Made by a program: the position numbers and the translations under genes. Below, piece after piece: positions 2,164 through 5,290 of a DNA stretch of 50,345 nucleotides. A model generated the notes under the pieces. That model searched no databases and was not told the DNA's origin. It saw only the letters and a program-made list of their open reading frames with translations. The DNA comes from Armatimonadota bacterium. GTDB lineage: Bacteria > Armatimonadota > UBA5829. How positions within the stretch are numbered: position 1 is the first letter of the stretch; each line of letters begins with the position of its first letter. The stretch lies in the NCBI GenBank assembly GCA_012522575.1, contig JAAYKE010000099.1:1-50345 (forward strand), given 5' to 3'.

Positions 2164-3030
2164 ATGGCTTTTCAATATTCGGTGTTCACTGTAATGATGC
2201 CTGAGTTCGATATCTCCGAATCTGCTGCGCTGCTGCGTGACTGCGGTTATGAGGGTGTCGAATGGCGAGTGCATAGCGTTCCAAGTCCGTTCCCTGTGAA
2301 GCCGGATTTCTGGCGCAGCAATAAATCTACAATTGATATTGAGACGATTGTAGAAAAAGCTCCAGAAGTGCGCAAAATCAGTGAGGATGCAGGGCTGAAA
2401 ATCATAGGATTGGGCACTTATATTAGTTATCGACGCCCGGATGATGTTGCCAAATGCATGGCGGCTGCTAGTGAAATGGGCTGTCCTTCGATCAGGGTTT
2501 CTCCGCCGAATTATGATGGATCCGTCAATTATAACGACCTCTTCGAAGAGTCACTGGATGGATATGCCCAGGTGGAAAATCTGGCAAGAGATTTTGGCGT
2601 GCGTGCTAACATAGAGCTGCACCACGGCAATATTTGTCCGAGCGCATCGCTTGCACATCGACTAGTCTGCAACTTTGATCCGGACTTCATAGGCGTAATT
2701 CTCGATCCGGGAAATATGATCTGCGAAGGATTTGAGAACTGGCAACTGGGACTTGAGCTACTTGGGCCTTACCTATCGCACGTTCATGTGAAAAATACAG
2801 CCTGGACAAAAGAAGCAGCCAGTGAAAACGGAGAAACACGCTGGAAACACACTGCGGCAAGGCTCAAGGATGGATGCGTAAACTGGTCGGAGGTGCTGTC
2901 AATTTTGCATAGATCAGGCTATAGAGGATGGTTATCGTTCGAGGACTTCACTCCGACAGACACCAAAACGAAACTTCAGGACAACATACAATATATCAAA
3001 CTCCTGACGAACAGGCTCGGTCTACAGTGA
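2164..3030 (+). CDS. Sugar phosphate isomerase/epimerase (xylose isomerase-like TIM barrel)
   Basis: GYEGVEWR, NIELHHGN, LDPGNM, SHVHVKN, GWLSFEDF motifs. Confidence 0.85.
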   Translation: MAFQYSVFTVMMPEFDISESAALLRDCGYEGVEWRVHSVPSPFPVKPDFWRSNKSTIDIETIVEKAPEVRKISEDAGLKIIGLGTYISYRRPDDVAKCMAAASEMGCPSIRVSPPNYDGSVNYNDLFEESLDGYAQVENLARDFGVRANIELHHGNICPSASLAHRLVCNFDPDFIGVILDPGNMICEGFENWQLGLELLGPYLSHVHVKNTAWTKEAASENGETRWKHTAARLKDGCVNWSEVLSILHRSGYRGWLSFEDFTPTDTKTKLQDNIQYIKLLTNRLGLQ

Positions 3031-4463
3031 GATTATATTTCGATTCAACAAAGCTGGGCATCGCAGCAATCGCAATCTGCGGGTTGCTGGCATGCACGTT
3101 ATCGCCGATTTGCGCTCAGGACGTCCCTGTGGCGCAAGCTTCAGAGCACGAGACTGGTCAACCTTCAACGGAGTGCGCCAGACAAGACCCCGATTCAATC
3201 AACATCTCCGCATCTGCGTTCGAGTTGAATGGATCAAAGATATTTGCTGAAGGGCAACTCCGCATACAAAGGGGCGGACAGCGGCTATTTGCAGATGAGG
3301 CTGAATATGATATGGAAGCAAATACGGGCAACGCAAGCAACGTGTTTATCACAACCTGCTCGTGTGAGAAACCTCACTATCATATCTCCGCAAAAAACAT
3401 TAAGCTGTTGCCCAATCAAAAACTCATTGCTCGCGGTCTCTCAGTTCACCTCGGAAAGACCAGGATAATATCGCTGCCACGAATGGTTTTGCGGTTGAAT
3501 AATCGAACAGGCCCGGCTTCGTTATTTCCCAGATTATCCAACGACTCTCAAGAGGGCCTGACTCTGCGGCACTCTTTGCGCCTGGTCGACACGCCGCGCA
3601 CGCAAACGACCCTTGACCTCAAGTTAACGGAAAATCTCTCGATTCAGCCCGGACTCGATGCCAGATATGGAATGAGAGGGCAACTTGTAAACTTTCCGGG
3701 CAGATATCTCAGCAATGATCTGACGATATCACGCGCAATCGATGTGACGGAGCCGCTGGCAAAAGACAGTGCCCCGAAACGGATGCGCTCCCTCATTGCG
3801 TCCCGTCTGCAAGCGTTCGCCAGACATGCTATACGCCAGAGGACATACGATATCAGCGACCCAAACCTGCTATTATACCGGCAGCCGGAGTTGGGAATAG
3901 TCTATCAAGGTTCGCAGCTATCTGCAGTTAAGCAGACTCTCGACCCGCGGCTCGAGTTGTATCCTCAGATATTCACTACCTGGGGAGTTTATAAAGAAAA
4001 CCAGGGACAAGTTAAGTCGCTTAACAGAACCAGGCTTGTAATGCAGGGCGCGGTCAACACAGTTCGGATGGGGCCGCGAACCGCCATACAACCCCTTGGC
4101 ATTGCCACCATTTCCAGCTACTCCAATGGAGATTCGTATCGCACTTATGGATGGGGAATCGATGCCGCGCACCTCACCCATAAAGGAGCGTTCTACTCTG
4201 CACGCTACGTCAGCCGCACATCCTCCGGCGCGACCCCTTTCAAATTCGACGACATAGACATCAAACGTGAGCTGGATCTGACCGTTCGCACATATCACGG
4301 CAAGCACGTCTATGGCCTGTCTCTTAACTACGATATCGCCTCCGGCACGCTCTTCGACTGGGAAGTTCTATATGGACAGCGCACCGACTGTCTGGGGACG
4401 TATTTGCGCTGGAACAATCGATTTAAGCACCTCTCATTCGATATTGGACTTATCAACCTGTAA
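3027..4463 (+). CDS. LptD/OstA-like outer-membrane protein, translationally coupled to the upstream gene
   Basis: GTG at 3027 overlaps the TGA at 3028-3030; signal peptide; OstA-type repeats (FAEGQLRIQRGGQRLFADEAEYD); beta-strand-rich C-terminus. Confidence 0.65.
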   Translation: MRLYFDSTKLGIAAIAICGLLACTLSPICAQDVPVAQASEHETGQPSTECARQDPDSINISASAFELNGSKIFAEGQLRIQRGGQRLFADEAEYDMEANTGNASNVFITTCSCEKPHYHISAKNIKLLPNQKLIARGLSVHLGKTRIISLPRMVLRLNNRTGPASLFPRLSNDSQEGLTLRHSLRLVDTPRTQTTLDLKLTENLSIQPGLDARYGMRGQLVNFPGRYLSNDLTISRAIDVTEPLAKDSAPKRMRSLIASRLQAFARHAIRQRTYDISDPNLLLYRQPELGIVYQGSQLSAVKQTLDPRLELYPQIFTTWGVYKENQGQVKSLNRTRLVMQGAVNTVRMGPRTAIQPLGIATISSYSNGDSYRTYGWGIDAAHLTHKGAFYSARYVSRTSSGATPFKFDDIDIKRELDLTVRTYHGKHVYGLSLNYDIASGTLFDWEVLYGQRTDCLGTYLRWNNRFKHLSFDIGLINL

Positions 4464-4747
4464 CAACTCACTCTTCGTGAGTGATTGTAGTGACTGGTCT
4501 CTGTCCCAGCCACACAAACTATGTCATTTCGAACGAAGTGAGAAATCTGCTTTTACGTAAATCGCGAAAGTCCGCAAGAAGCGAGACTCAGAAATGGGAA
4601 GGGAAAAAGCAGATTCCTCGGCTTTCGCCTCGGAATGACAATTTAATTGACGCATTCAAGTGTAGTAGCTGGCCTCTGTCCCGACCTTGTCCGAGACGGA
4701 GATCGGACACTACGGGCAGAGGTACTCATCATTCGTGAGCTGTTACA
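4459..4747. mobile_element. MITE-like element: 13-bp terminal inverted repeats (12/13), flanking direct repeat, no transposase, containing a second repeat element
   Basis: TGTAACAACTCAC (4459-4471) vs GTGAGCTGTTACA (4735-4747); direct repeat ATCAACCT at 4452-4459 and 4747-4754. Confidence 0.65.
4522..4640 (+). repeat. Dispersed ~119-bp palindromic repeat, copy 1
   Basis: TGTCATTTCGA...GAAATCTGCTTTT and AAAAAGCAGATTCCTCGG...CGGAATGACA; end-to-end similar to the reverse complement of 48174-48291. Confidence 0.85.
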
Positions 4748-4761
4748 TCAACCTCTAATAA

Positions 4762-4790
4762 TTGACATGGGTTGTTGACGGGAGTATACT
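4762..4790 (+). promoter_or_regulatory. Sigma70-type promoter TTGACA-N17-TATACT for the trkA pair
   Basis: -35 4762-4767, -10 4785-4790. Confidence 0.75.
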
Positions 4791-4831: not shown

Positions 4832-5290
4832 GTGAGAGTAGTTATACTGGGCTGCGGCAGGGTTGGAGCTAACGTTGCCACTACGATGTCGCGTGAAGGA
4901 CACCACGTGACTATAATAGACAGAAATCCCGATTCATTTGGACGGCTTGCCGCCGATTTTACCGGCCGCCAGGTGCTTGGCAATGGCATTGATGAGGAGA
5001 CTCTGAGAGATGCCGAACTCGATAAAGCAGACGCATTCCTAGCCGTGACCAATGGCGACAACCGAAATATTATGTCCGTTCAGATGGCCAAAGTGCGCTT
5101 CAAAGTGCCAAAAGTGGTTGCGCGGATATATGACCCCAACCGAGCTTACGCCTATTCTGAACTGGGCATAGATACTATTTGCACAACATGTGTCGGCGCA
5201 GGGCTGATGCGGGATATGATCCTCGGACGGCCTTTCGGGCAGATCCACGACTACACCCACATGGGATTGGGAGAAGATCAATATGAGTAA
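4832..5290 (+). CDS. TrkA-N (RCK) NAD-binding K+ uptake regulator
   Basis: ORF 4772-5290; GTG at 4832 follows ggagg; MRVVILGCGRVGANVA Rossmann motif. Confidence 0.85.
   Translation: MRVVILGCGRVGANVATTMSREGHHVTIIDRNPDSFGRLAADFTGRQVLGNGIDEETLRDAELDKADAFLAVTNGDNRNIMSVQMAKVRFKVPKVVARIYDPNRAYAYSELGIDTICTTCVGAGLMRDMILGRPFGQIHDYTHMGLGEDQYE

What the first reader, a model, noticed from the sequence alone, without database searches (positions are those of the whole stretch)
4452..4754. Transposase-less element with TIRs and flanking direct repeat inserted on a stop codon it recreates
TIRs TGTAACAACTCAC/GTGAGCTGTTACA (12/13) are flanked by ATCAACCT at both ends, a likely target-site duplication. Conceptual excision restores ...GGA CTT ATC AAC CTC TAA TAA, the same LINL-stop C-terminus of the LptD-like protein that the inserted form encodes as ATC AAC CTG TAA, with TAA supplied by the TIR. 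The insertion is therefore coding-neutral. Each end also forms or nearly forms a small hairpin (ACTCAC-TCTTC-GTGAGT; CTCA-TCATTCG-TGAG).
Basis: seen in the sequence. Interest (0 to 1): 0.65.

Follow-up and report, generated by a model that had tools for sequence, protein, structure and literature searches.

The report
Orphan IS66-type miniature transposon (MITE)
A 287-base piece of "jumping DNA" without its own enzyme, one of about a hundred copies in this Armatimonadota genome, landed so exactly on a gene's last codon that the encoded protein did not change; it is an ordinary kind of element whose moving enzyme (an IS66-family transposase) was found only in relatives.

Summary
The element is 4460-4746 (287 bp, GTAAC...GTTAC), flanked by a perfect 8-bp target duplication, ATCAACCT (4452-4459 and 4747-4754). 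The true inverted repeat is 23 nt (GTAACARCTCACnnnTnnTGAGT) and includes the small hairpins. The genome holds about 100 copies (196 ends, 0 in the reversed-pattern control). Paired copies have direct repeats of exactly 8 bp. The same-genus relative G001 keeps the empty site: ...GLINL, CTC-stop, then the TTGACA-N17-TATACT promoter of trkA. The insertion therefore changed CTC-TAA to CTG-TAA, a silent change, and spared the promoter. A full-length relative in the same family (G004, 1440 bp, matching ends, perfect 8-bp duplication) encodes an IS66-family transposase. Published ISDge4 (ISBst12 group of IS66) has near-identical ends and an 8-bp duplication. No IS66 transposase was found in the window's own assembly, so this is an orphan MITE. 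Landing on a stop codon is expected by chance in roughly a quarter of such genomes. It is a new MITE family of a known kind. One mildly unusual point is that related MITEs carry the same ends around different, widespread hairpin cores.

The parts
4460..4746 (+). MITE, 287 bp, GTAAC...GTTAC, no transposase gene
4452..4459 (+). left copy of the 8-bp target-site duplication ATCAACCT (last codons ATC AAC CT-)
4747..4754 (+). right copy of the target-site duplication, followed by the ancestral C TAA TAA
   Evidence: matches the empty site of G001
4460..4482 (+). left terminal inverted repeat GTAACAACTCACTCTTCGTGAGT (dyad ACTCA-N7-TGAGT; supplies TAA at 4461-4463)
4724..4746 (-). right terminal inverted repeat, GTAACAGCTCACGAATGATGAGT when read inward
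4522..4640 (+). hairpin core TGTCATTTCGA...TCGGAATGACA, a module of a separate widespread palindromic repeat
   Evidence: whole element folds with z = -5.6
2928..4463 (+). host gene, LptD-like protein (511 aa), whose stop codon TAA (4461-4463) lies inside the MITE end
   Evidence: NCBIfam LptD model only weakly (E 3e-4, far below its cut-off); matches in all 16 relatives searched, and the closer ones share the L-I/Y-NL C-terminus
4762..4790 (+). promoter of the downstream trkA gene, TTGACA-N17-TATACT, left intact 15 bp beyond the element
   Evidence: (same promoter in G001)
4832..5290 (+). TrkA-N domain protein gene, probable GTG start at 4832 after GGAGG
   Evidence: start aligned with G001 by eye

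Best explanation
[quoted passage not shown] An IS66-type transposase acting in trans recognises the 23-nt ends (GTAACARCTCAC...TGAGT) and inserts the element with an 8-bp staggered target cut, giving 8-bp direct repeats. Here it inserted between the second and third base of the last sense codon of the LptD-like gene. The duplicated target rebuilt the last codons, the first base of the element (G) completed CTG (Leu, silent for CTC), and TAA in the element's end replaced the native stop. The trkA promoter downstream was left whole. Shown here: element, copies, duplication, empty site in a relative, matching full-length IS66 element in a relative. Inferred: that such a transposase moved the element, and that it has since been lost or was missed by the assembly.
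For: About 100 copies (196 ends, control 0), full-length matches 81-93% identical to the window copy. 35 end pairs: 17 perfect 8-bp direct repeats, 25 with at most one mismatch, none of 9 or 10 bp. Empty site in G001 in synteny, with the LptD-like gene followed by trkA and a nitroreductase-like gene upstream; G001 has no MITE copies or ends. A 1440-bp element in G004 has ends GTAACAGCTCAGTCTTGATGAGT / GTAACAGCTCACTTTCGATGAGT, a perfect 8-bp repeat CGTATTCT, and a 442-aa protein that passes the IS66 cut-offs (Pfam DDE_Tnp_IS66 7e-39; NCBIfam NF033517 244 bits against 180). IS66 genes of G015, G016 and G017 lie beside the same kind of end. Published ISDge4, ISBst12 group: ends GTGACTACTCAGCA / GTAACTGCTCAGCA, 8-bp repeat, single 449-aa transposase, seen to transpose (PMC12898284).
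Against: No IS66 transposase was found in the window's own assembly by protein search or by Pfam model (one weak hit that lies in a gene recognisable as ribosomal protein L20). Homology between the MITE and the IS is confined to the ends (about 24 nt, 83-84%), so it is not a simple deletion derivative of that IS. No movement was observed.
Confidence: 0.92

Rival explanations
1. MITE moved by another transposase family that also makes 8-bp duplications (for example IS256, ISL3, IS1595 or IS6), with convergent ends.
For: 8-bp duplications occur in several families (general knowledge); no IS66 transposase was found in the own genome.
Against: The same 23-nt end design flanks an IS66 transposase with an 8-bp repeat in a same-family genome and lies beside IS66 genes in other relatives; ISDge4 has the same ends.
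Confidence: 0.05
2. REP/BIME-like palindromic repeat spread by a REP-associated tyrosine (Y1) transposase or by recombination, not by end-recognising DDE transposition.
For: The interior is a strong hairpin (z = -5.6), and its core occurs outside recognisable MITEs.
Against: Defined ends and exact 8-bp duplications; no Y1 transposase in the genome. This may still hold for the core repeat taken by itself.
Confidence: 0.02
3. A domesticated regulatory element kept between the two genes, for instance as a 3'-end hairpin that stabilises the LptD-like mRNA or shields trkA from read-through.
For: Strong fold; sits exactly between a stop codon and a promoter.
Against: No terminator-like site was called here; absent from the same gene pair in G001; one of about 100 dispersed copies; the position is expected by chance. 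It could be a side effect, not the origin.
Confidence: 0.05

Closest known systems
ISDge4 (IS66 family, ISBst12 group; Deinococcus geothermalis, PMC12898284)
   Same: Ends GTGACTACTCAGCA / GTAACTGCTCAGCA, 8-bp direct repeat, single transposase ORF of 449 aa (442 aa in the G004 element)
   Different: Autonomous and in another phylum; our element carries no gene
G004 1440-bp IS66 element (L078 1501-2940, found here)
   Same: 23-nt ends with CTCA/TGAGT arms, 8-bp duplication, same bacterial family
   Different: Encodes the transposase; interior unrelated to the MITE
MITEAba12 (Acinetobacter, PMC6382973)
   Same: IS-derived MITE, duplication of the parent's length; one copy fuses to a gene end and gives a stop codon
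   Different: Parent ISAba12, 9-bp duplication; its stop truncates a protein by 398 aa, whereas here the protein is unchanged
MITECca01 (Cardinium, PMC9769881)
   Same: About 240 bp, high-copy, transposase-free MITE with the ends of a known IS
   Different: Parent (ISCca4, IS982 family) is present in the same genome

Membership tests
MITE | Short (below about 350 bp), no transposase gene | tested here: met
   36 copies with a duplication are 240-341 bp; longest ORF fully inside the window copy is 85 codons
MITE | Terminal inverted repeats | tested here: met
   23-nt repeat, conserved over 72 ends
MITE | Target-site duplication of fixed length | tested here: met
   Exactly 8 bp, 17 of 35 pairs perfect
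MITE | Multiple dispersed copies | tested here: met
MITE | Empty site in relatives | tested here: met
   G001
MITE | Parent element with the same ends in the same genome (usual, but not strictly required) | tested here: not met
   No IS66 transposase in the own assembly; found in relatives only
IS66 family, ISBst12 group (as the mobilising element) | Ends begin GTAA (general knowledge of IS66; GTAAC/GTGAC in ISDge4) | tested here: met
   GTAAC in the window copy; first five positions 93-99% over 72 ends
IS66 family, ISBst12 group (as the mobilising element) | 8-bp target duplication | tested here: met
IS66 family, ISBst12 group (as the mobilising element) | Single transposase ORF with DDE_Tnp_IS66 domain between such ends | tested here: met
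   In G004 only, not in the window's genome
IS66 family, ISBst12 group (as the mobilising element) | The transposase acts on these MITE ends | not testable with these tools
   Needs a transposition assay
REP / RAYT system | Y1 transposase in the genome | tested here: not met

The most novel reading that the evidence does not exclude
IS66-type ends act as a chassis that repeatedly picks up unrelated, widespread hairpin repeats as cargo. G002, G011 and G014 carry a ...GTCGAAG...CTTCGAC... core, whereas the window genome and G016 carry the GTCATTYCGA...AATGAC core. The cargo is then spread through genomes that no longer hold any IS66 transposase.
Probability: 0.25. Interest if true: 0.45.

Novelty: new member of a known kind. 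Interest (0 to 1): 0.27.

Why it matters
It adds a high-copy IS66/ISBst12-derived MITE family in Armatimonadota; no IS66-derived MITE turned up in the papers searched, and a 2024 review of prokaryotic MITEs does not mention IS66. It also gives a clean example of how an IS end that starts GTAA can cap a gene without changing its protein. The copies also account for many contig breaks in this assembly.

Tried and rejected
IS66 Pfam search of the own genome: the single weak hit lies in a gene recognisable as ribosomal protein L20. A search for longer elements with these ends in the 1.42 Mb of own contigs held gave only 240-341 bp pairs with a duplication. Contig-end stubs were checked for IS sequence in place of MITE: none matched the IS beyond 30 nt. 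Rfam gave no family. A Y1 transposase search was empty. A literature search for the core sequence by letters found only unrelated papers, apparently chance primer matches. Special targeting of stop codons was rejected: about 0.4% per intergenic insertion, about 23% for 65 insertions, and only the window copy among 36 is exactly neutral for a long ORF.

Full report
What is there. The element runs from 4460 to 4746 (287 bp; GTAAC...GTTAC) and is bracketed by ATCAACCT at 4452-4459 and 4747-4754. In 72 ends of 36 copies, positions 1-12, 16 and 19-23 are strongly conserved apart from position 7 (A or G), while positions 13-15 and 17-18 split half and half, which matches the left and right forms. 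This gives the repeat GTAACARCTCACnnnTnnTGAGT.

More than chance. DNA search of the own genome returns 46 matches from the 40 candidates that were scored, out of 225 first-look candidates. The end pattern at up to 2 mismatches occurs 196 times, against 0 for the reversed pattern, hence about 100 copies. Of 35 end pairs 200-350 bp apart, 17 have a perfect direct repeat of exactly 8 bp, 25 have at most one mismatch, and none has 9 or 10 bp. The interior folds much better than shuffles (z = -5.6).

Empty site. In G001 (same genus, 55% protein identity to the host gene) the gene ends TTG ATC AAT CTC TGA, followed closely by TTGACA-N17-TATACT and the same trkA gene, with no element. In the window the sequence after the element is ATCAACCTC TAA TAA TTGACA-N17-TATACT. 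The right copy thus keeps the ancestral gene end and the promoter, while the left copy is joined to the element as CTG TAA. The protein still ends in GLINL, the C-terminus also seen in relatives. G001 has no copies or ends at all, so the burst postdates the split from G001 or the copies were lost there.

Who moves it. Scanning 291 genomes of the phylum for the ends found them in seven, all in the same order, five of them in the same family. One match, in G004, is a 1440-bp element with both ends and a perfect 8-bp duplication, encoding a 442-aa IS66-family transposase. Other IS66 genes in the order lie beside similar ends. The ISBst12-group element ISDge4, seen to transpose in Deinococcus, has the ends GTGACTACTCAGCA / GTAACTGCTCAGCA and an 8-bp repeat (PMC12898284). 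The own genome (100% complete by the tool's estimate, 189 contigs) has no such gene, although the same query finds it in six of the other genomes. The MITE is therefore an orphan, or its driver fell into an assembly gap.

The stop-codon landing. Both ends begin GTAA, so insertion at one phase gives an immediate TAA. From ORFs in 1.42 Mb of own contigs, about 0.4% of intergenic insertions should be exactly neutral at a gene end, giving about 23% for 65 insertions (a rough estimate that takes ORFs of at least 100 codons as genes). No targeting need be assumed. Elsewhere a copy appears to cap an 866-codon open frame 60 codons early (L138).

The interior. The 119-bp core (4522-4640) belongs to another repeat, seen outside recognisable MITEs in the own genome and in relatives. 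MITEs of G002, G011 and G014 have the same ends but a different hairpin core, and that of G016 shares the window's core. Exchange of hairpin cargo between the same ends is the only unusual point; how it arises was not shown.

Organism. The only named record with an exact match to the end pattern is an Armatimonadetes MAG from Lac Pavin sediment (JAPLCU010000190.1). Its element and duplication match the G002 copy L064, with the same 155-bp length and the same TTGGGAAT repeat. The phylum of the window's genome is inferred from this, since G002 is in the same family as the window's genome.

Noticed in passing
window 4522-4640; L035, L036, L037; own contigs: Palindromic repeat GTCATTYCGA...GAAATCTGCTTTT...AAAGCAGATT...AATGAC, widespread in the order; 34 of 110 left-arm matches in own contigs have no MITE end nearby (a few of these are chance coding matches). 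No Y1 transposase in the genome; how it spreads is unknown.
   Followed up: partly
L064, L077, L070, L065 (G002, G011, G014): 148-172 bp MITEs with the same IS66-type ends and perfect 8-bp duplications but a different hairpin core (GTCGAAG...CTTCGACGGAGCTCAGGATGCT).
   Followed up: partly
L138 1483-1808 (contig C69): A MITE copy supplies TAA to an 866-codon open frame, apparently shortening it by about 60 codons relative to the conceptual empty site.
   Followed up: no
own contigs, first or last 70-260 bp (e.g. C8, C17, C19, C32, C61, C90): Many contigs break inside a MITE copy, so this repeat limits the assembly.
   Followed up: partly
L098, L100, L109, L115 and others: Interspersed short modules such as CTCTAACTTCTAACCTCTAA and GATGTCCGAGGTCAGATGTCCGAAG recur across intergenic regions of the genome.
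   Followed up: no
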